DNA of 64,000 nt from Terebella lapidaria (lineage: Eukaryota > Annelida > Polychaeta > Terebellida > Terebellidae), in NCBI GenBank assembly GCA_949152475.1, contig OX424560.1, forward strand, positions 22,321,106-22,385,105. Direction: 5' to 3'. Position 1 is the stretch's first letter. Each line of letters opens with the position of its first letter. The notes under the pieces are model-generated. The model was not told where the DNA came from and did not search any database. It worked only from the letters and a program-made list of their open reading frames with translations. Positions 46,700 to 62,700 of this stretch are shown piece after piece. The translations under genes were made by a program, and so were the position numbers.

Positions 46700-49330
46700 A
46701 CACCTGAAACATGTCGCTGTGTCGTGTTCATGTACACTCGTTCTGAAATACAGTAGGAATATTACAGTGAGTGATCTTAAAACGTGCGTGCAGGAAGTGA
46801 AGGGGACAATGAAAGTGTTTTATGAGGTAGTACCATCAAGGATCTTTGGTACCATCATCCGAAACAATACGAAGTGCAATGAGACACTGAGACACTGGGG
46901 AACATTGGTAATCTTGCAACTTGTATAATTTTCCATGTATCTATATCTAAGGGTGCCCTATTGATTAGTGGTCCTCTCAGTAGTAACGGAAAAAAGTAGC
47001 ATAATAAAAAATGTGATTCGCAAATATTGAGTTTATCTTTCATAATTCCATATAGCTCGGAATATCATAGATCACTACAAAAAACTTCAATTATTCGAGC
47101 TAGCAATATCATATTCTTACTATTGTTCATTTCCTCGAAGTTCAGGGAAATTGTGCTAGTGTGACTGAAATGTGATTGGAAACACAGGTGAGTTATCAAG
47201 TTTTGTTCGGGGTTACTGGGTCACACCCTTAGAAGCATGCGTGACTTTGGGGGATAATGTGGTGCACGAGAGATTAATTTGAGATGTTTTTTGAGACGGT
47301 AATTTGAATGAACATTATTCTTGCATGGGAACGAGGCATTGTTAAAATTGTAATCAGCGATTTTTTCAGTAATCATTAGGATATTCATGGTGAAGTATGG
47401 TTCCTTGATGTTAATTTTGAACTTATGCAGTATACTCATACTGTGAATTACCCACGTGTAAAAAATCTAGACACACTTTTTTGACGAGAAATTTATCATT
47501 TTCTGCACAAAAAGACATGACTGGGTATGTGGAGAGATTTTTACATCTCCATTGTTGGACATCAGGAAAAAGAATATCATCATACGATCTCAAAGTCAAT
47601 TTTATTATTCCTTTACCACAGAGATCTACGCCTCTCCGATTCCCATTATTATCCCTTCACAGACCTACCATCCATGACATCGAAACACCCATATCAAAAA
47701 GCCCAAATCAGTGAGTGTACCAGTTCTGTGTTCTACAGATTCAAATACATGTACATTGTTGTTATTCATCTAAATGGTTTTATTAATGCCATAGTTATTG
47801 GTGGTGTTGTGTTCATTTATTCCCTTTTAAAATGCTGGTAATCACATGGAACATTACAACAGTTATTGTCACACTGGTTTTCGTAAAGAAAATGTCTGAG
47901 GGGTATTGAGGAAGAACTTTGATCTCGACCCAACCTTTTCTCTGAGTCGGCATTTTTTTTTTTCAATCTCAATGCATTCTATAGAAGCTTTATTTTAGTT
48001 CGCCTCCACAAAAACTCGAGCAGAGCCGATGTATGCATGTTATAATGTATGGATTCCTACTATATTCCAACTACTGCAGACACGAATCTATTCCACAAAA
48101 TGATCAATTATCAAGTGAAATTGATTTATTGGACATTACATTGTAAGAATATCTTATCGATAGAATGAGAACACAATGTCGTATGAAGACAAAACATGTC
48201 GTATTGATGTCATTCCAGGTTATATATATATGTAACTGCTTGCTGTGAACAAACAATCAATTGCATTACCCGAATCAGTAAAATACGCAGCCAACTCGGA
48301 AAATGAAAACAAAATTGTATTAATGATTAAGGTCTCTGTGAAATTAATGTTTCAGTGAAATGCAAAGACGAAAAGTGTTTACCTGTACATCAAGTTGACA
48401 CTGATCGTATTATCTCTTCTACGCTAGGACACTGATTGATTGACGTCTTGCCACTAAGCCGCGGAGAAATCTCCATCCCTTCCCAGACACTCGGTCTAGT
48501 ATTCAGTTCAAATTCACAGGGCAATTGCCTCACAGGAAGTTATCCAGTGCGCGGCCATGAAAGGAAGTGAAGAGGACAACGCGAGTGCTTCACAGGATAT
48601 GTTTATGGCATATCAGCTGATATCTGGTTCGTTCAAGAGATTGAAACACATCAGTAATAGTGCAGATTGTGTATTTTATCTTTTATGTACTTTATATCAT
48701 TACACTACGCCACTACATATTACAAGTCATAGACTAGCACCAGAGGTTTTTTTTAACATTTGTATATGCTTATAGCTGTCCTGCAACAAATGAATCTGAA
48801 ACTAGCTGAAATGAAACCAACTGAATCCCCTAATATTCTGAAAATATGGAGGTCCACCACCACTGAATATTGCCGAACCAGGAAACCATTATTACACATG
48901 ATGCTGCGCGTACTTTTCACCATATTTTTGATATAATTTCTACGCTCATATTTTCACCACACTGTAGATCATCATCAGAGCATCACTAAGCTCCTCGAAG
49001 GAATTAGTTCCAATAAATATTCGTGTACATGCATGACTGAGCCCTCTATCCTTTAGACGCGTGGTCGGGTGCTTGGTCTTTGGAAACGTGAGTGCACATT
49101 GCATGTGGCTCTTGGAAATTGTTTGACTGTGATCAGGGCATATCCATTGACTGAAGTTATGTTAATTTCAGTACGATAGGCTAAATTGTTTTGTCTTCCT
49201 TCAATAGACAATTCCACAGGAAAATGTCACTGAGTAAATTATCTTTGAATGAATGTTATAGATTATGTGAATTGTCCGTAAGATTAATATATTCGAACAA
49301 AAATTCCTGGAGGTGAATCACTGAACCCTC
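46700..49330. repeat. Fragments of further array copies (copy D) in AT-rich DNA
   Basis: Bases 46774-46860 (AAAACGTGCGTGCAGGAAGT) match 40150-40210, and 48390-48620 (GGACACTGATTGATTGACGT, CCAGTGCGCGGCCATGAAA) match 40000-40170. So the right-hand end of the unit occurs at least twice more here. The remainder is AT-rich with no supported gene. Confidence 0.5.
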
Positions 49331-49552
49331 TATCTACTCGGAGCGATTTTGGGTGCACATTAATTGAACACCTGAGTGCAAGCTGAATAGCCCTTGACTA
49401 TGGATCAGTCATTGCGAGGGTATGTCCACCAACGGACATTCAGTTCATTTCAGTACGATACTAAACAAGGACACAGTATATCGGTATATTTACCCTCGCC
49501 CCGATAGGGGCAGAGGGTATTGCAATTGGGTCTGTCCGTTTGTATGTTTGTT

Positions 49553-52500
49553 ACTTGGCGAAATCTTCGATTTTGCCAAGTATGTTGGTTGGTTTGGATG
49601 TATGTATGTTTGTTAGTTTGTTTGTATACACGTTCGCCCTCTAGAGGGCACAATTTTTGTTCGATTTTTGTGAAATTTTCACCAGACATGCACATCCAAA
49701 TTGTTAGATCCCCCATTGTTTTTCAAGGTCGTAGGTCAAAGGTCAAGGTCACAGGAACGTTTTGAAAATCGTTTGCCATTTAAGCCAATGATAAACTTAA
49801 AACGTCCATATCTCAAAAACTATTGCAGATAGAGCAAAAATAACGTTATTTTCGGATCAGTCACATAGGTTTAATATATGAAAAGCATAGATTATGCAAA
49901 TTAGCATGTATATCACTATGATGACGTCATCTCACACCAAACCGGAAGTAGAATTATTTTTCAAGCAAATGAACTCTGGATGCCCAAGGGTCAGTTATTA
50001 GGCCATTTTTGTGTGTTTCAAGGCCAAAAATTGATACTTTCCTCTATTATCACCCACTTTCCATAAAAACCTCCATATCTGTTTCCCAGCTCAGTGATGT
50101 CCACATGATCTGATAAAGCCTAAAAGTCACGCCTCAATGCAATCTGTATGAAGCTAGGGGCTCCTAAATATTGGCATATTTGGGGGTGACGAACCGGCGT
50201 TGGCTAGGCAGCACTGTTGCGTGTCTTAAGCAGTGATGAACTCATGACCAAAGATCCTGTACATACACCTGATATTGTCTGCTTCTTATTTTACATGCAG
50301 GAATCTTTGTTCACACCATACCGGCCACAATTTTGTGTCATCCTAACCAAACGTATCACACGTAGGAACTACCTGCTACCTCAGATCATCCCAAATTGTC
50401 ATGGTCGAGATTCGAATGATGGTGTCACAAAAAAGATGGCAAAATTCCTATCATTGGTGTCTTTTTTTTTAATTTTCAGAAATTCACACGGCAGTCAAAT
50501 TCTGACCGATTTTTACAGGGTTCGGCATGCTTGTATCGATTGATATCCTATATGAAAGAATAAAGTTTTGACTGGATTGGTTGAACGCCAAAGACTTCAT
50601 GATCTAAAACGTGGATTTTACAAATAGGTTTATATAATGTAAAGTACAGCTGTATTTGCCTTAGAGAGAAGCAGATTTCACTGTTGTGAGGCTTGATGAA
50701 TTCTGGTTCAATTTGTCACTGTCTGATATACCATGATAATTTTATTTGCTATAACGTCATGAACGCAGAGGCAGGTGGGCCAATTATCTAACTGTTCAGC
50801 AAACATTCACTGTGCACGCAATTTCAGAACTATGTGCATGTTATTTTGAGGACATATGTTGAATATTGATATCAAGCCATACACCGAGTTCTGAGATGCT
50901 ATTTGGAAGGTAGATTCAATTTTCGAAGTACAGTTCTATTGCGGGAAGTATTTGGTAGTCCTAGAGTGGAACTGATCACACCATTGGAAAGCTTGTTCAA
51001 TTCTGCTCAAGGTAGGTCATGTGCAATTTTGCTCTTCCACAATATATTTTCCACTATGACGTAATAAACGAAGTCTCGTCATGTCAATTTTTCGATTTTT
51101 CAACGAAAATTTAAAAATCCACTGTACACTCAATTTTGAAGCTATTCAACTGTAATTTTAAATACCTGTATGAAATATTATTACCCAAGGATTCCCCTTT
51201 GTTTATACAGTAAGCAACTATCGATATACCGGATGTTGTCCATTCTGAAAACCGGCCATATTCCTGTGACCCAACCGGCCATACTTATTCTCCAAACCGG
51301 CGTTACCCCAATAATTCAAAACTGCGGCATGTCAATTGCAATCAGCCGCACTTCATCGGATCACAGACCGATGTCAGAGGCTGCGCTTTAGTCACACGTC
51401 TTTGAAAACACAACTGCATCGGGAACATGGCGCTCACAAATTGTAATTACCAACAACTAAACTTCGTTAGTTAGGGGTCGTTTGAAGAATTCATGATTTA
51501 CCTGACTTTCTCGAGTAAATCACTGCGAGCTCATCACTGGGGTGACACGCATTGTTCAAAGTGATAATTAATCAGTGCATGCTATAAACGCAGACAACAA
51601 TTCTATGACACCATGCAATCTTGTCCTACTATGTATTTTCTGCAGTTGGCTTTAAGATGTGCTAATTGCACAACATCATAATGATGTCAATAGAAAACCT
51701 ACAATTCATAATCCATTAACTAAAATTGTTTACTTGAATGTTCTGCAATAAATCTATACAGATCCGACCTATTACCAATAACATAATATTAGCTACACCG
51801 ATGTCCATGAAGTTTGTATCTACATGTACTTAAAATAGCTGGCCGGTATTTAGTTACGTTATGTTGTGTAACAGTGAAAAACGAAGTCGGCCGGTATCTG
51901 CATATCGGGTGAGAAGATCGATGTTCTCTCTCTCTCCAGACTCTCGATAAACCGGCGCTCTGTCCATACCGGATTTTTCCCCTGGTCCCATGGAGATCCG
52001 GTTTATACAGAGTACACTGTACTGCTATATCTCGGTTTTTAATCATTGTAGATTGAATTACAGCATTGCAAAAAAGTCAGGTTATGTGTGAATCTTGTCT
52101 ACGTGGACACAATTATTATGCTATATCATACATGTATAAGTAGATACCTTCATACCAGTTATTCAACTTTTCACCGAAATTTCAAACATCCACTTTGCAC
52201 TCACTTTTGAAGGTATTGTATTGTTCTTTTGAAATATATGGGATATCGACTAGCTTTGAAACTGCTCAACATATGATACCACATCATTTATCATCATATG
52301 ATAGCTTTTTGTTGCTTCCTCGTCTACGTGTATCCTATTCTTGTAACCTGTAAACCAGTTACATTGTTGTAATCCAGTTACATCATTGTCATTGTGTATA
52401 CAATTTTGTTAACCTCTCTAACTGACATGCTGTGAATATTGACGAGTTATTGGCACAGTTGAATCAAACAATTGAAACCAACGTTACAGGTAATAACCGC

Positions 52501-52716
52501 AAAATCCTATTAATTTTAACGTGTCAGATTTTTTTGGAGTGTCAATACCATCTATTGACATCTACGTGATTCAGCTACATTTATTGACATCGAAAATGCA
52601 TGTAGTAAGTGCAAATGTCCCACCATTACAGTTTTTGTTTATAACACAAACTGCTCGTCAATGACATTTCAGAATTAAAAATTCAAATAGTTTTTTACAG
52701 TCAGATTTCGCCAAGT
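49553..52716. mobile_element. Inner element bounded by ACTTGGCGAAATCT inverted ends
   Basis: ACTTGGCGAAATCT at 49553-49566 is the exact reverse complement of 52703-52716. The left end folds on itself (ACTTGGCGAAATC, loop TTC, then GATTTTGCCAAGT). Just outside the right end is another hairpin (TCACTGC, GGA, GCAGTGA). A related TTTCGCCAAG followed by a hairpin recurs at about 52977-53000. The interior is AT-rich, non-coding apart from the pogo-like element. Confidence 0.45.
51208..52019. mobile_element. Pogo/Tigger-like non-autonomous element, 812 bp
   Basis: The left end CAGTAAGCAACTATCGATAT is followed by ACCGGAT; the right end in complement reads CAGTGTACTCTGTATAAACC then GGAT. Flanked by TA on both sides (51206-51207, 52020-52021). 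CAGT starts, a TA target and ATA(A/T)ACCGG subterminal motifs fit pogo/Tigger MITEs. Several ACCGGC(C/G) repeats lie in both ends. The interior carries no transposase. Confidence 0.55.
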
Positions 52717-53006
52717 GTCACTGCGGAGCAGTGATAAAAAAACAACCACTATATATTGCAATTAATCAAAGTATCGCTCAAGACGTCAGATCTAAAGTCT
52801 GTCCAGCTCAATTTTCAAGCAATTGCTCAACATCACCTCAAAACAATTGTGCACAGCGCTCATGTAAGCTCATTGTAATGCTATTATCTAGTTTTATGTA
52901 TGACAAAAATCATCAAATCTGTCAAAGTTCTAAAACCTAAAACGCAAAAAATCTAAAACGCGAAAAAGACGCTGCATTTCGCCAAGGCTGCTTGCAGCGT
53001 TTTCTC

Positions 53007-54560
53007 GTTTGTTTGTTTGTTTGTATGTTTGTCTGTCCGCGCGCATATCTCAAAGGAGAATGGTCCGATCAACATGAAACTTATAGGGATGAAGCGGTAT
53101 CTCAGTGGCTCGGTCCTCCTCGAATCTGGTCAAAATCGGACAAAAACTGTTGCCATGGCAACGGAAAATGTAAAAATCAATAATTGACCATAACTCCATT
53201 TATATTCAAGATAAATTTTTCTAACTAATTTTGTATTTTTCTATGGCCAATTCCTGATCATCTGATATATGGACCGTGGTCGTACGACGAAAACTCTCCA
53301 TTATCGCCCGATGTCGAAAAATTGGGGGTCACGGTTTCGATTTTTTTTTGGCCAGCGACGTTTCAGTGCAAATGTCTGCGCTCATAACTCAAAGGCAAAC
53401 GGCCCGATCGATTTGAAATTTATTTGAAATTTATAGCTGGCTCAGTCCCTTCAAATTTTTGCCAAAATCGGATGAAAACGGTTGCCATGGCAACGGAAAA
53501 AAAGAAAATCACATAATTGGCTCTAACTCCGGTTCTACCTGATATTAATTTTTCCAACTATTTTTGTATTGTTCTTTGGCCAATTCCCGATCGTTTGGTG
53601 TACGACCATCGGCCGTACACCGTACGATCCGGAATTGGGCAAAGAAAAATACAAAAATAGCTGGACAAATTAATATCAAGTAGAACCGGAGTTATAGCCA
53701 TTTATGTGATTTTCACTTTTTCCGTTGCCATGGCAACCATTTTTATCCGTTTCCGACCAAATTTGAAGAAGACCGAGCCAATACCATAGCGCTTCAGTGC
53801 TATAAATTTTAGAACGATAGATCCATTTGTTTTTGAGTTATAAGCGCAGACATTTGCCCTGAAAAGTCGCTGGCCAAAAATAACCGAAATCGTGACCCCC
53901 AATTTTTCGGCATCGGGCGATAATAGAGAGTTTTCGTCGTACGACCATCGGTCGTACACCAAACGATCGAGAATTGGCAAAAAAAAAATACAAAAATAGT
54001 TGGAAAAATTAATATCAAGTAGAACCGGAGTTAGAGCCAATGATGTGATTTTCTCTTTTTCGTTTCCATGGCAACCGTTTCCATCCGATTTTGATAAAAT
54101 TTTAAAAGGACCGAGCCACCACTATAGCACTCTCGCCCTATAAACTTCAGATTGATCGAACCGTTTGCCTTTGAGTTATGAGCGCGGACATTTGCACTGA
54201 AACGTCGCTGGCCAAAAAAAGTTCGAAACCGTGACCCCCAATTTTTCGACATCGGGCGATAATGGAGAGTTTTGGTCGTACGACCACGGGCCATATATCT
54301 GGTGATCAGGAATTGGCCATAGAAAAATACAAAATTAGTTAGAAGAAATTATCTTGATTAGAACCGAAGTTATGGTCAATTATTGATTTTTACATTTTCC
54401 GTTGCCATGGCAACAGTTTTTGTCCGATTTTGACGAGATTCGAGGAGGACCGCGCCATTGAGATTCCGCTTCATCCCTATCCCTATCGAACCATTCTCCT
54501 TTGAGATATGCGCGCGGACAGACAAACGAACAAACAAACATACAAACGGACAGACCCAAT
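53007..54560. repeat. Head-to-head fold-back of about 340-bp subunits
   Basis: The left arm (53007-53620) has two forward subunits; the right arm (about 53630-54560) has three in reverse. Each subunit has, in order, ATAACTCAAAGG...CGATC, GTTGCCATGGCAACGG, CATAACTCC, TTTTTGTATTTTTC, GGTCGTACGAC, ATTATCGCCCGATG and TTGGGGGTCACG. The symmetry centre is near 53600-53630 (GTGTACGACCATCGGCCGTACACC region). If transcribed, the arms could form a hairpin of 600 bases or more. The open frames found here (for example 53702-54040 minus) come from this repeat, not from genes. Confidence 0.9.
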
Positions 54561-54599
54561 TGCAATATCCTCGCCCCCTACGGGGCGAGGGTAATAACA

Positions 54600-55401
54600 T
54601 ATTTGAAAAGTACTCTCAAAGACCTTTCAAACAAGCTGCTATATGATACGTTCGAAAAAGTTCAAGGTCAATGTCATTTTCAGGTCAACTTCGACCTTGG
54701 GCGCTTGGAAAGGCAATATGTCATAGGCCTTAGGTCTGAATACAAAAGTTGCTGGGCTACTTGCAGAGTTGCTGGAGACAACTATTTTTTATGAAAGATT
54801 GCCCTTGAACGTTTGGATCAAGATCAAAAGTTACTCCGAGATCACGTAGGTATCACGTAGGGAAGACCCTGACATTATCTACAATATCAACTTTTTTTTA
54901 AGTCTCTATGGTGATTAGAATGGAAGTTATGGCCGCAAATGTGTTTTTGACGTTTTACGTGACCTTGACCTTGTTATTTGACCTTGAGCCTAACAAAGGG
55001 TTTGTGCTCTTCCTTTGTAAGCCATAAACCTTTCCACCAAAAATTGCATAAATTTCCAATGAAAACTGGGGCCTAGAAAACATACGGAATCGATCAACAT
55101 ACTTGACGAAATCTTTGATTTCCTCACGTAAAAAGCAAACTGGAATATTTCACTAAGAAGCAACCATCACAGCAACACGCACGTGTTTATTACAAGTCAG
55201 TGGGTAGATTCATGTGGTAGCTCCATGTGATTCTTGATCGATGGTTGCATGGGTTTTCAGCATACTGTTATAAATCAATGTTGTGGTTGGAGATTTATAT
55301 GTACACATTTACTATGGGAATGTGTGTCTTCGGAATGCATTTTCCTTTTATATTTTACCTAATTACTACCTTATCACCATCAACGCTGATTTAGATATGT
55401 G
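54600..55401. other. Right flank of the composite element within unit 1
   Basis: No gene. It contains TTGACCTT/AAGGTCA-type short repeats (54660-54700, 54960-54990), which resemble nuclear-receptor half sites but are common in such repeats, and AT-rich DNA to the unit end. Confidence 0.45.
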
Positions 55402-58400
55402 TCTACTCGGAGCGATTTTGGGTGCACATTAATTGAACACCTGAGTGCAAGCTGAATAGCCCTTGACTATGGATCAGTCATTGCGAGGGTATGTCCACCA
55501 ACGGACATTCAGTTCATTTCAGTACGATACTAAACAAGGACACAGTATATCGGTATATTTACCCTCGCCCCGATAGGGGCAGAGGGTATTGCAATTGGGT
55601 CTGTCCGTTTGTATGTTTGTTACTTGGCGAAATCTTCGATTTTGCCAAGTATGTTGGTTGGTTTGGATGTATGTATGTTTGTTAGTTTGTTTGTATACAC
55701 GTTCGCCCTCTAGAGGGCACAATTTTTGTTCGATTTTTGTGAAATTTTCACCAGACATGCACATCCAAATTGTTAGATCCCCCATTGTTTTTCAAGGTCG
55801 TAGGTCAAAGGTCAAGGTCACAGGAACGTTTTGAAAATCGTTTGCCATTTAAGCCAATGATAAACTTAAAACGTCCATATCTCAAAAACTATTGCAGATA
55901 GAGCAAAAATAACGTTATTTTCGGATCAGTCACATAGGTTTAATATATGAAAAGCATAGATTATGCAAATTAGCATGTATATCACTATGATGACGTCATC
56001 TCACACCAAACCGGAAGTAGAATTATTTTTCAAGCAAATGAACTCTGGATGCCCAAGGGTCAGTTATTAGGCCATTTTTGTGTGTTTCAAGGCCAAAAAT
56101 TGATACTTTCCTCTATTATCACCCACTTTCCATAAAAACCTCCATATCTGTTTCCCAGCTCAGTGATGTCCACATGATCTGATAAAGCCTAAAAGTCACG
56201 CCTCAATGCAATCTGTATGAAGCTAGGGGCTCCTAAATATTGGCATATTTGGGGGTGACGAACCGGCGTTGGCTAGGCAGCACTGTTGCGTGTCTTAAGC
56301 AGTGATGAACTCATGACCAAAGATCCTGTACATACACCTGATATTGTCTGCTTCTTATTTTACATGCAGGAATCTTTGTTCACACCATACCGGCCACAAT
56401 TTTGTGTCATCCTAACCAAACGTATCACACGTAGGAACTACCTGCTACCTCAGATCATCCCAAATTGTCATGGTCGAGATTCGAATGATGGTGTCACAAA
56501 AAAGATGGCAAAATTCCTATCATTGGTGTCTTTTTTTTTAATTTTCAGAAATTCACACGGCAGTCAAATTCTGACCGATTTTTACAGGGTTCGGCATGCT
56601 TGTATCGATTGATATCCTATATGAAAGAATAAAGTTTTGACTGGATTGGTTGAACGCCAAAGACTTCATGATCTAAAACGTGGATTTTACAAATAGGTTT
56701 ATATAATGTAAAGTACAGCTGTATTTGCCTTAGAGAGAAGCAGATTTCACTGTTGTGAGGCTTGATGAATTCTGGTTCAATTTGTCACTGTCTGATATAC
56801 CATGATAATTTTATTTGCTATAACGTCATGAACGCAGAGGCAGGTGGGCCAATTATCTAACTGTTCAGCAAACATTCACTGTGCACGCAATTTCAGAACT
56901 ATGTGCATGTTATTTTGAGGACATATGTTGAATATTGATATCAAGCCATACACCGAGTTCTGAGATGCTATTTGGAAGGTAGATTCAATTTTCGAAGTAC
57001 AGTTCTATTGCGGGAAGTATTTGGTAGTCCTAGAGTGGAACTGATCACACCATTGGAAAGCTTGTTCAATTCTGCTCAAGGTAGGTCATGTGCAATTTTG
57101 CTCTTCCACAATATATTTTCCACTATGACGTAATAAACGAAGTCTCGTCATGTCAATTTTTCGATTTTTCAACGAAAATTTAAAAATCCACTGTACACTC
57201 AATTTTGAAGCTATTCAACTGTAATTTTAAATACCTGTATGAAATATTATTACCCAAGGATTCCCCTTTGTTTATACAGTAAGCAACTATCGATATACCG
57301 GATGTTGTCCATTCTGAAAACCGGCCATATTCCTGTGACCCAACCGGCCATACTTATTCTCCAAACCGGCGTTACCCCAATAATTCAAAACTGCGGCATG
57401 TCAATTGCAATCAGCCGCACTTCATCGGATCACAGACCGATGTCAGAGGCTGCGCTTTAGTCACACGTCTTTGAAAACACAACTGCATCGGGAACATGGC
57501 GCTCACAAATTGTAATTACCAACAACTAAACTTCGTTAGTTAGGGGTCGTTTGAAGAATTCATGATTTACCTGACTTTCTCGAGTAAATCACTGCGAGCT
57601 CATCACTGGGGTGACACGCATTGTTCAAAGTGATAATTAATCAGTGCATGCTATAAACGCAGACAACAATTCTATGACACCATGCAATCTTGTCCTACTA
57701 TGTATTTTCTGCAGTTGGCTTTAAGATGTGCTAATTGCACAACATCATAATGATGTCAATAGAAAACCTACAATTCATAATCCATTAACTAAAATTGTTT
57801 ACTTGAATGTTCTGCAATAAATCTATACAGATCCGACCTATTACCAATAACATAATATTAGCTACACCGATGTCCATGAAGTTTGTATCTACATGTACTT
57901 AAAATAGCTGGCCGGTATTTAGTTACGTTATGTTGTGTAACAGTGAAAAACGAAGTCGGCCGGTATCTGCATATCGGGTGAGAAGATCGATGTTCTCTCT
58001 CTCTCCAGACTCTCGATAAACCGGCGCTCTGTCCATACCGGATTTTTCCCCTGGTCCCATGGAGATCCGGTTTATACAGAGTACACTGTACTGCTATATC
58101 TCGGTTTTTAATCATTGTAGATTGAATTACAGCATTGCAAAAAAGTCAGGTTATGTGTGAATCTTGTCTACGTGGACACAATTATTATGCTATATCATAC
58201 ATGTATAAGTAGATACCTTCATACCAGTTATTCAACTTTTCACCGAAATTTCAAACATCCACTTTGCACTCACTTTTGAAGGTATTGTATTGTTCTTTTG
58301 AAATATATGGGATATCGACTAGCTTTGAAACTGCTCAACATATGATACCACATCATTTATCATCATATGATAGCTTTTTGTTGCTTCCTCGTCTACGTGT

Positions 58401-61400
58401 ATCCTATTCTTGTAACCTGTAAACCAGTTACATTGTTGTAATCCAGTTACATCATTGTCATTGTGTATACAATTTTGTTAACCTCTCTAACTGACATGCT
58501 GTGAATATTGACGAGTTATTGGCACAGTTGAATCAAACAATTGAAACCAACGTTACAGGTAATAACCGCAAAATCCTATTAATTTTAACGTGTCAGATTT
58601 TTTTGGAGTGTCAATACCATCTATTGACATCTACGTGATTCAGCTACATTTATTGACATCGAAAATGCATGTAGTAAGTGCAAATGTCCCACCATTACAG
58701 TTTTTGTTTATAACACAAACTGCTCGTCAATGACATTTCAGAATTAAAAATTCAAATAGTTTTTTACAGTCAGATTTCGCCAAGTGTCACTGCGGAGCAG
58801 TGATAAAAAAACAACCACTATATATTGCAATTAATCAAAGTATCGCTCAAGACGTCAGATCTAAAGTCTGTCCAGCTCAATTTTCAAGCAATTGCTCAAC
58901 ATCACCTCAAAACAATTGTGCACAGCGCTCATGTAAGCTCATTGTAATGCTATTATCTAGTTTTATGTATGACAAAAATCATCAAATCTGTCAAAGTTCT
59001 AAAACCTAAAACGCAAAAAATCTAAAACGCGAAAAAGACGCTGCATTTCGCCAAGGCTGCTTGCAGCGTTTTCTCGTTTGTTTGTTTGTTTGTATGTTTG
59101 TCTGTCCGCGCGCATATCTCAAAGGAGAATGGTCCGATCAACATGAAACTTATAGGGATGAAGCGGTATCTCAGTGGCTCGGTCCTCCTCGAATCTGGTC
59201 AAAATCGGACAAAAACTGTTGCCATGGCAACGGAAAATGTAAAAATCAATAATTGACCATAACTCCATTTATATTCAAGATAAATTTTTCTAACTAATTT
59301 TGTATTTTTCTATGGCCAATTCCTGATCATCTGATATATGGACCGTGGTCGTACGACGAAAACTCTCCATTATCGCCCGATGTCGAAAAATTGGGGGTCA
59401 CGGTTTCGATTTTTTTTTGGCCAGCGACGTTTCAGTGCAAATGTCTGCGCTCATAACTCAAAGGCAAACGGCCCGATCGATTTGAAATTTATTTGAAATT
59501 TATAGCTGGCTCAGTCCCTTCAAATTTTTGCCAAAATCGGATGAAAACGGTTGCCATGGCAACGGAAAAAAAGAAAATCACATAATTGGCTCTAACTCCG
59601 GTTCTACCTGATATTAATTTTTCCAACTATTTTTGTATTGTTCTTTGGCCAATTCCCGATCGTTTGGTGTACGACCATCGGCCGTACACCGTACGATCCG
59701 GAATTGGGCAAAGAAAAATACAAAAATAGCTGGACAAATTAATATCAAGTAGAACCGGAGTTATAGCCATTTATGTGATTTTCACTTTTTCCGTTGCCAT
59801 GGCAACCATTTTTATCCGTTTCCGACCAAATTTGAAGAAGACCGAGCCAATACCATAGCGCTTCAGTGCTATAAATTTTAGAACGATAGATCCATTTGTT
59901 TTTGAGTTATAAGCGCAGACATTTGCCCTGAAAAGTCGCTGGCCAAAAATAACCGAAATCGTGACCCCCAATTTTTCGGCATCGGGCGATAATAGAGAGT
60001 TTTCGTCGTACGACCATCGGTCGTACACCAAACGATCGAGAATTGGCAAAAAAAAAATACAAAAATAGTTGGAAAAATTAATATCAAGTAGAACCGGAGT
60101 TAGAGCCAATGATGTGATTTTCTCTTTTTCGTTTCCATGGCAACCGTTTCCATCCGATTTTGATAAAATTTTAAAAGGACCGAGCCACCACTATAGCACT
60201 CTCGCCCTATAAACTTCAGATTGATCGAACCGTTTGCCTTTGAGTTATGAGCGCGGACATTTGCACTGAAACGTCGCTGGCCAAAAAAAGTTCGAAACCG
60301 TGACCCCCAATTTTTCGACATCGGGCGATAATGGAGAGTTTTGGTCGTACGACCACGGGCCATATATCTGGTGATCAGGAATTGGCCATAGAAAAATACA
60401 AAATTAGTTAGAAGAAATTATCTTGATTAGAACCGAAGTTATGGTCAATTATTGATTTTTACATTTTCCGTTGCCATGGCAACAGTTTTTGTCCGATTTT
60501 GACGAGATTCGAGGAGGACCGCGCCATTGAGATTCCGCTTCATCCCTATCCCTATCGAACCATTCTCCTTTGAGATATGCGCGCGGACAGACAAACGAAC
60601 AAACAAACATACAAACGGACAGACCCAATTGCAATATCCTCGCCCCCTACGGGGCGAGGGTAATAACATATTTGAAAAGTACTCTCAAAGACCTTTCAAA
60701 CAAGCTGCTATATGATACGTTCGAAAAAGTTCAAGGTCAATGTCATTTTCAGGTCAACTTCGACCTTGGGCGCTTGGAAAGGCAATATGTCATAGGCCTT
60801 AGGTCTGAATACAAAAGTTGCTGGGCTACTTGCAGAGTTGCTGGAGACAACTATTTTTTATGAAAGATTGCCCTTGAACGTTTGGATCAAGATCAAAAGT
60901 TACTCCGAGATCACGTAGGTATCACGTAGGGAAGACCCTGACATTATCTACAATATCAACTTTTTTTTAAGTCTCTATGGTGATTAGAATGGAAGTTATG
61001 GCCGCAAATGTGTTTTTGACGTTTTACGTGACCTTGACCTTGTTATTTGACCTTGAGCCTAACAAAGGGTTTGTGCTCTTCCTTTGTAAGTCATAAACCT
61101 TTCCACCAAAAATTGCATAAATTTCCAATGAAAACTGGGGCCTAGAAAACATACGGAATCGATCAACATACTTGACGAAATCTTTGATTTCCTCACGTAA
61201 AAAGCAAACTGGAATATTTCACTAAGAAGCAACCATCACAGCAACACGCACGTGTTTATTACAAGTCAGTGGGTAGATTCATGTGGTAGCTCCATGTGAT
61301 TCTTGATCGATGGTTGCATGGGTTTTCAGCATACTGTTATAAATCAATGTTGTGGTTGGAGATTTATATGTACACATTTACTATGGGAATGTGTGTCTTC

Positions 61401-61470
61401 GGAATGCATTTTCCTTTTATATTTTACCTAATTACTACCTTATCACCATCAACGCTGATTTAGATATGTG
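55402..61470. repeat. 6,069-bp direct tandem duplication, unit 2
   Basis: Copy of 49333-55401 at constant offset 6,069, with no insertion or deletion seen. It carries the same nested elements: outer ends about 55559 and 60663, inner element 55622-58785, pogo-like element 57277-58088, and fold-back about 59076-60629. Confidence 0.97.
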
Positions 61471-62700
61471 TCTGCATTTTGGACTTCAGTTTATAACACA
61501 GCATGCGTGCTAACGTCAATCGACCCAATATTGTGTTTTTCTTCAGCTCAGCAGTCAATTTGTAGGTAAAGCAAAAGATCCCCCATATACTGAGGATTTC
61601 AACCGTGACGAGGACGTATAAATCTAATGTAGACTATAGTGTATTCTCAAATTGACACACAAAGCCCGAATCTTAGTTCACACAGTCTATTAAACAAAGG
61701 CGAGAGCGATGACACATGTAAAGATAATGTGACGACGCATATCAGGGGTGAATCCAGGAATTCGGGGGAGGGGGGGGGGGGGGGCAATAAACCACCCGGA
61801 AGAACCCAAAGTGAATGAATCTAGTCCATTGCGTCCAGGAATCTGGGTCACGCTCAAAATTTGAGGATGTACTGTGGGACACATATAATTAACTGGACAT
61901 GTGTAACTGTCAGATGGTTGGGCGGATTATCACATTCATCAATAGTGATGAAGTCCGACAGTAGATCGGACTGGTAGATTAGTCCGGATACCAATCACAT
62001 GTTGATTTATATAAAACCAGTGAAGTTGCAAATGCGCGATGATTTAATTTTAGATGCGTTAAATTGCACTCCATATTAGCAGCAATCGTGCTTCCTGGAA
62101 AGTTGTATTGGGGAAATCAACTCAAATCGCCTCCTATTCATTTCGCATCACCGTCAAAATATCCAGATTTAGGCATTGTACATGAACCCCGTGGATCCTT
62201 GAACTTCAGTAGAAACTAGCACAGGGAATTACCGGGTGTGCGGCTAACAAGTTTAGATGGAGAAGGGGTGACAGAGAGGGCGTAAGACATTGATGATATT
62301 AAGTCAGAATAAAGCTTATCACCTTCGTGCACTGGAGGACCTTAAAAGGGTAAAATGGGACGCTTTACTTTCTCTTGTTATCTGGACTCAACAATCACAT
62401 CAAAAACAGCGCCTGTTATGGAAGCAGGAAGGCTCTCAAGGTTAAACTTAAGAAGTTTGTCCTCATGCAGTGTCAGAGGCAACACAAGAGTGTAATGGTT
62501 GTGCTATATACATTATATTGTGTGCTATATGTGATGTGTATTTTCAGTCTCTGATTCTGTTGCCAATATATGATTATCATTCAAAATGCAGTATTTGGTT
62601 TGTGACTGTGCCTACATTTCAGACAGATGAGTACATGTATAACATTGTTCTACTCATTCTATTCACATCATGGATGGTTTAAAGGTAATTGAGTGTGAAT
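61471..62700. other. Right flank of the tandem duplication, no gene established
   Basis: Less AT-rich than the arrays. Contains a poly-G tract at about 61765-61784. No frame with recognisable features. Bases 62300-62460 are fairly balanced in composition but read closed in all frames beyond 40 codons. Confidence 0.4.

What the first reader, a model, noticed from the sequence alone, without database searches (positions are those of the whole stretch)
49333..61470. Near-identical 6,069-bp tandem duplication with a 3-bp junction
Two adjacent units with one noticed substitution (55022/61091) in a region where all other duplications are badly diverged. The breakpoint shows only TCT microhomology, so it was not mediated by the repeats inside. 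If real, it is extremely young, probably polymorphic, and doubles a fold-back element. If not, it is two haplotypes or a repeat placed twice in assembly.
Basis: partly seen in the sequence, partly recalled or inferred. Interest (0 to 1): 0.75.

Follow-up and report, generated by a model that had tools for sequence, protein, structure and literature searches.

The report
Very young 6-kb tandem duplication
A worm chromosome carries the same 6-kilobase stretch of non-coding, transposon-filled DNA twice in a row with a single base of difference, most likely a recent copying accident during DNA repair rather than an assembly error; it is well described but ordinary.

Summary
Confirmed. 49333-55401 and 55402-61470 are 6,069-bp direct repeats with one mismatch (C at 55022, T at 61091) and no indel. 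TCT stands at the left edge, the junction and the right edge. A query across the junction matched in full at one place in the 762-Mb assembly. The genome is probably an annelid's (mitochondrial gene order; label recalled).

Diverged paralogues nearby keep sequence from both sides of each outer join in order, so the internal 55401/55402 join is taken as the derived one. Relatives of the mismatch site carry C in 18 of 18 rows (14 distinct places), so T in copy 2 is derived. The breakpoints lie outside the transposon and share no longer homology than shuffles give.

Best reading: one recent end-joining or template-switch event copied a nested fold-back transposon (49490-54594) with 157 bp and 807 bp of flank. 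Three bases of microhomology is weak evidence: 6.5% of random breakpoint pairs reach it. Reads are needed to exclude a false duplication.

Similar near-identical repeats turned up at six other repeat-rich places in this assembly, so this one is not unique there.

The parts
49333..55401 (+). tandem unit, copy 1 (6,069 bp), C at 55022 (ancestral state)
   Evidence: base state
55402..61470 (+). tandem unit, copy 2 (6,069 bp), T at 61091 (derived state)
   Evidence: base state
55402..55404 (+). TCT at the novel internal junction 55401/55402; the same triplet stands at 49333-49335 and 61471-61473
   Evidence: full match across the junction at one place in the assembly
48706..49479 (+). left outer join (left flank to unit start); both sides found in order in diverged paralogue L028:2176-2822, although about 70 bp around the breakpoint (roughly 49310-49378) mostly lack a counterpart there
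61432..61587 (+). right outer join (unit end to right flank), also present in diverged paralogue L030:1737-1891 (77%)
49490..54594 (.). fold-back composite transposon in copy 1 (inverted ends of 62 and 63 bp, TTACCCTCGCC...GGCGAGGGTAA), no coding capacity recognised; copy 2 is the same at +6069
   Evidence: no convincing Pfam match in 9 reading frames tested
49553..53020 (+). inner non-coding repeat nested in the fold-back element; relatives elsewhere 78-93% identical over aligned pieces longer than 480 bp; boundaries approximate
53006..54548 (.). inner fold-back region with overlapping inverted repeats (largest arms 341 nt, 93% complementary); 53600-54429 has a 339-bp period
54595..55401 (+). 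807 bp of locus sequence in the unit to the right of the transposon (54596-54759 and 54876-55140 are dispersed repeats; no match elsewhere was listed for the rest)

Best explanation
A real and very recent tandem duplication of a non-coding, transposon-filled 6,069-bp segment. SHOWN: two head-to-tail copies, one derived C-to-T in the downstream copy, an internal join with 3 bp of homology and no inserted bases, outer joins with counterparts in diverged paralogues, and no transposon end at either breakpoint. INFERRED: a break or stalled fork in the germ line was repaired by copying about 6 kb from the sister chromatid. The extended end was then joined at TCT to the other end, by polymerase-theta-type or other end joining, or by a microhomology template switch, leaving the copied stretch twice. 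The inverted repeats of the fold-back element may have caused the stall, but nothing here tests that. No function is inferred for the duplicated DNA.
For: Exact anatomy. Full match across the junction at one place, and no other near-identical copy among the scored candidates. Both outer joins have ordered counterparts in diverged paralogues. T is derived: 18 of 18 aligned rows, 14 distinct places, carry C (the six loci that hold the two copies themselves were left out). No longer homology between breakpoints: the best direct local score was reached by 61 of 200 shuffles and the inverted one by 25 of 200. No N in the window or in any of the 47 loci. The size fits break-repair tandem duplications in C. 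elegans brc-1/brd-1 mutants: 1 kb to 1 Mb, mostly about 10-20 kb, microhomology at the joins, dependent on polymerase theta (PMC7368036, passages read). In Drosophila, 262 of 644 CNV breakpoints (41%) show microhomology of at least 2 bp without added bases (PMC4056370, passages read).
Against: No reads, depth, second haplotype or second individual could be examined. Three bases of microhomology arise by chance in 6.5% of random breakpoint pairs, so blunt end joining fits almost as well. About 70 bp right at the left breakpoint mostly lack a counterpart in paralogue L028, and the right join rests on one paralogue. Near-identical local repeats at six other places in the same assembly could also mean that the assembly over-duplicates.
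Confidence: 0.8

Rival explanations
1. False duplication in the assembly: one true copy placed twice (homotype), or two alleles laid head to tail (heterotype).
For: The assembly holds other near-identical local repeats. False duplications on the same scaffold remain even in assemblies made to avoid them (PMC9516828, passages read).
Against: No gap between the copies, whereas that paper lists gaps between duplicated pairs as a mark of false duplication. The copies differ at one base whose derived state is plausible as a mutation, though a base error would look the same. Two alleles with at most one difference in 6,069 bp is improbable at 0.2% heterozygosity or more, though the species' value is unknown.
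Confidence: 0.16
2. Unequal exchange between repeats (NAHR), or a transposon-mediated duplication.
For: The unit is 84% transposon (5,105 of 6,069 bp), and related repeats lie in near-identical tandem arrays elsewhere.
Against: Breakpoints lie 157 bp and 807 bp outside the transposon ends. No homology beyond TCT was found at the breakpoints.
Confidence: 0.02
3. An old duplication kept identical by gene conversion between the copies.
For: Adjacent direct repeats can convert each other (general knowledge).
Against: Near-identity runs to the exact edges of the unit with no diverged end zone; the diverged paralogues of the flanks are 67-80% identical to them.
Confidence: 0.02

Closest known systems
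Polymorphic small tandem duplications in Drosophila (PMC6380325, passages read)
   Same: head-to-tail; most tandem duplications there have no divergence between copies (1,560 of 1,920)
   Different: here one assembled haplotype of a probable annelid, no population data
Tandem duplications from polymerase-theta end joining in C. elegans brc-1/brd-1 mutants (PMC7368036, passages read)
   Same: kb-size unit, short microhomology, simple join
   Different: single natural event; pathway not tested; most of theirs were about 10-20 kb
False duplications in assemblies (PMC9516828, passages read)
   Same: two copies on one scaffold
   Different: no gap, only one mismatch; depth and read spanning unknown

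Membership tests
Recent microhomology-type tandem duplication | two adjacent head-to-tail copies with near-identity | tested here: met
   6,068 of 6,069 identical, no indel
Recent microhomology-type tandem duplication | internal join is derived, outer joins ancestral | tested here: met
   paralogue alignments across both outer joins; on the left about 70 bp around the breakpoint mostly lack a counterpart, on the right one paralogue only
Recent microhomology-type tandem duplication | short homology (2 bp or more) and no long homology at the join | tested here: inconclusive
   3 bp present but 6.5% by chance; no long homology
Recent microhomology-type tandem duplication | junction carried by single molecules, depth normal | not testable with these tools
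   no reads available
NAHR product | long homologous repeats at both breakpoints | tested here: not met
Heterotype false duplication | copies differ at the rate of alleles | tested here: inconclusive
   1 difference in 6,069; heterozygosity of the species unknown, no second haplotype found in flank searches
Homotype false duplication | gap between copies or abnormally low read depth | tested here: inconclusive
   no gap; depth not testable

The most novel reading that the evidence does not exclude
The fold-back element acts as a fragile site that duplicates its own neighbourhood: its inverted repeats stall or break forks, and repair copies the element with short flanks. This would make such elements drivers of tandem duplication without transposition. 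The unit fully brackets the element (157 bp and 807 bp of flank); by my arithmetic from the coordinates, about 9% of randomly placed 6,069-bp segments that overlap the 5,105-bp element would contain it whole.
Probability: 0.12. Interest if true: 0.45.

Novelty: new member of a known kind. Interest (0 to 1): 0.22.

Why it matters
If real, it is a clean, roughly datable, possibly segregating example of how kb-scale tandem duplications start in a repeat-rich invertebrate genome, with old and new joins both readable. Together with the other near-identical local repeats in this assembly it gives a test: true duplications with end-joining joins would point to a high natural rate; duplications that fail read support would point to an assembly problem. 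On its own it duplicates no gene recognised here.

Tried and rejected
NAHR through internal or flanking repeats: disfavoured. Transposition of the unit: disfavoured, no transposon end at the breakpoints and no other near-identical copy among the scored candidates. Retained haplotig on an unplaced contig: left- and right-flank searches returned the own locus, the second copy of the unit, diverged local paralogues or short dispersed pieces, 5 matches each. Coding content of the unit: no match in 3 unit frames and no convincing match in 9 unit frames that overlap these, the only row being Sec7-like_HUS at 18.8 bits against a cut-off of 27.3. No Rfam match in 48000-62500. A wider Pfam scan took 59 of the 282 frames counted (window without copy 2, and loci L027-L030); transposase, integrase and reverse-transcriptase families matched in one member each. 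The transposase is L027:3059-4084; which members carry the other two was not resolved. tRNA search of the mitochondrial pieces with ARAGORN found none. Paper searches served to find comparisons, not to show absence from print.

Full report
OBSERVATION. Copy 1 (49333-55401) and copy 2 (55402-61470) were compared base by base: 6,069 bp each, one mismatch (55022 C / 61091 T), no indel. The periodic match ends at 55404, which gives TCT at the left edge, the junction and the right edge. The window lies at G000:C6:22321106-22385105 of a 761.6-Mb eukaryotic assembly in 438 contigs. A 905-bp query across the junction matched in full at one place only (40 of 2,067 candidates scored). A 1-kb query from the unit found these two copies as the only exact full matches; the next best match was 90% (40 of 1,907 candidates scored). 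There is no N in the window, nor in any of the 47 loci.

ORGANISM. The mitochondrial contig C438 (15,973 bp) holds a cox1 that reads in the invertebrate code. Its large frames lie on one strand in the order nad4, nad1, nad3, nad2, cox1, cox2, cox3, nad6, cob, atp6, nad5, and a trnN-like stretch seems to follow cox1. The gene names other than cox1, the trnN reading and the judgement that this is the annelid order are from recall; ARAGORN reported no tRNA in either piece.

POLARITY. The neighbourhood is a set of diverged local duplications. Paralogue L028 aligns on both sides of the left edge of the unit, in order (48706-49479 with L028:2176-2822), but about 70 bp around the breakpoint itself (roughly 49310-49378) mostly lack a counterpart. 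Paralogue L030 aligns across the right edge (61432-61587 with L030:1737-1891, 77%). In L028 the best alignment to this side with sequence beyond 62000 left out was 61325-61488 with L028:2973-3130, score 43.2 against a maximum of 33.8 in 20 shuffles; it overlaps the much better match of 62023-62091 to L028:3079-3148, so I do not count it. The right edge thus rests on L030 alone. On this evidence both outer joins are older than the duplication, and the internal join is the new one.

THE ONE DIFFERENCE. The site lies in a dispersed repeat. All 18 aligned rows that cover it carry C; the six loci that hold the two copies themselves were left out of that search. Four rows repeat a place already seen in another locus, leaving 14 distinct places, many of them members of tandem arrays and so not independent (the count of distinct places is mine, from the coordinates). 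The T in copy 2 is thus derived, as a new mutation or a base-calling error would be.

AGE. One difference in 6,069 bp is 1.65e-4 (95% Poisson 4.2e-6 to 9.2e-4). At assumed rates of 1e-9, 3e-9 and 1e-8 per base per generation this is about 82,000, 27,000 or 8,000 generations, with wide limits. The rates are assumptions. At 0.2% allelic difference or more, two alleles would show at most one difference with probability 7e-5 or less; at 0.1% it is 0.016 and at 0.05% it is 0.19, so a nearly inbred individual would not be excluded.

ANATOMY OF THE UNIT. 157 bp of locus sequence; a fold-back element 49490-54594 with inverted ends of 62 and 63 bp; 807 bp of locus sequence that includes two dispersed-repeat pieces. 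The element is a nest: an inner non-coding repeat of about 3.5 kb, whose relatives elsewhere are 78-93% identical to it over pieces longer than 480 bp and less over some shorter ones, and an inner fold-back region 53006-54548 with inverted arms of up to 341 nt and a 339-bp period over 53600-54429. Relatives of the inner repeat on C7 and C273 are 98.0-99.97% identical to each other over 2.8-2.9 kb (L033-L036), so that family has spread recently. No convincing protein family and no Rfam family was found in the unit.

MECHANISM. The breakpoints lie outside the transposon. A local alignment of 600 bp around each gave a direct score that 61 of 200 shuffles reached and an inverted score that 25 of 200 reached, so long homology is absent. 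A match of 3 bp or more at random breakpoint pairs in the collapsed window occurred in 6.5% of 20,000 draws (5.9% from composition), so TCT is suggestive only. The form fits end joining of a sister-copied end, as described for C. elegans brc-1/brd-1 mutants (PMC7368036, passages read), and the commonest class of CNV joins in Drosophila, 262 of 644 (PMC4056370, passages read). The exact pathway is inferred.

ARTEFACT OR NOT. Features listed for false duplications include half or very low depth and gaps between copies (PMC9516828, passages read). Depth could not be tested; there is no gap. Against my reading, near-identical local repeats appeared at six other places: C6 lag 4,263 (6 mismatches in 8,294), C8 lag 4,338 (4,060 aligned, no mismatch, one indel), C4 lag 46,773 (2,094 identical), C4 lag 73,614 (2 mismatches in 1,570), C5 lag 27,015 (3,000 of 3,000), and C273 lag 1,757 (2 mismatches in 1,166). 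They were picked from hits of transposon-derived queries. Four of the pairs (C8, both C4, C273) run to an edge of the fetched stretch and the C5 pair fills it, so their extent is unknown, and whether they are true duplications, recent transposon copies or assembly errors is open.

VERDICT. A real, very young tandem duplication is the best reading (0.8). It belongs to a known kind. Interest is low unless the fragile-site idea or a genome-wide excess is shown.

Noticed in passing
L029/L030 (window coordinates 76884-81111 and 81533-85757): A second, older local duplication just downstream: 4.2 kb at 94.7% identity with 421 bp between the copies.
   Followed up: partly
L037-L038 (C6:38168255-38180811), L041, L042/L043, L044/L045, L046/L047, L036: Near-identical local repeats (99.8-100%) at six other places of the assembly, lags 1.7 to 73.6 kb.
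   Followed up: partly
L030 and L040 (window coordinates 87024-87760 and 100294-101030): A pair of 737-bp direct repeats, TG...CA, 2 mismatches, with GAAG directly outside both: a young LTR-type insertion. A 1,189-aa frame on the minus strand of L030 between them had no Pfam match.
   Followed up: no
L010, L011 (C417, 61 kb): A second COX1 split in two pieces with many TGA codons on a contig whose fetched piece has 24% GC; perhaps the mitochondrion of a ciliate living with the animal (ciliate is a guess from recall).
   Followed up: no
L027:3059-4084 (-): A 342-aa frame matching Tc3-type transposase families (PF01498, PF13358).
   Followed up: no
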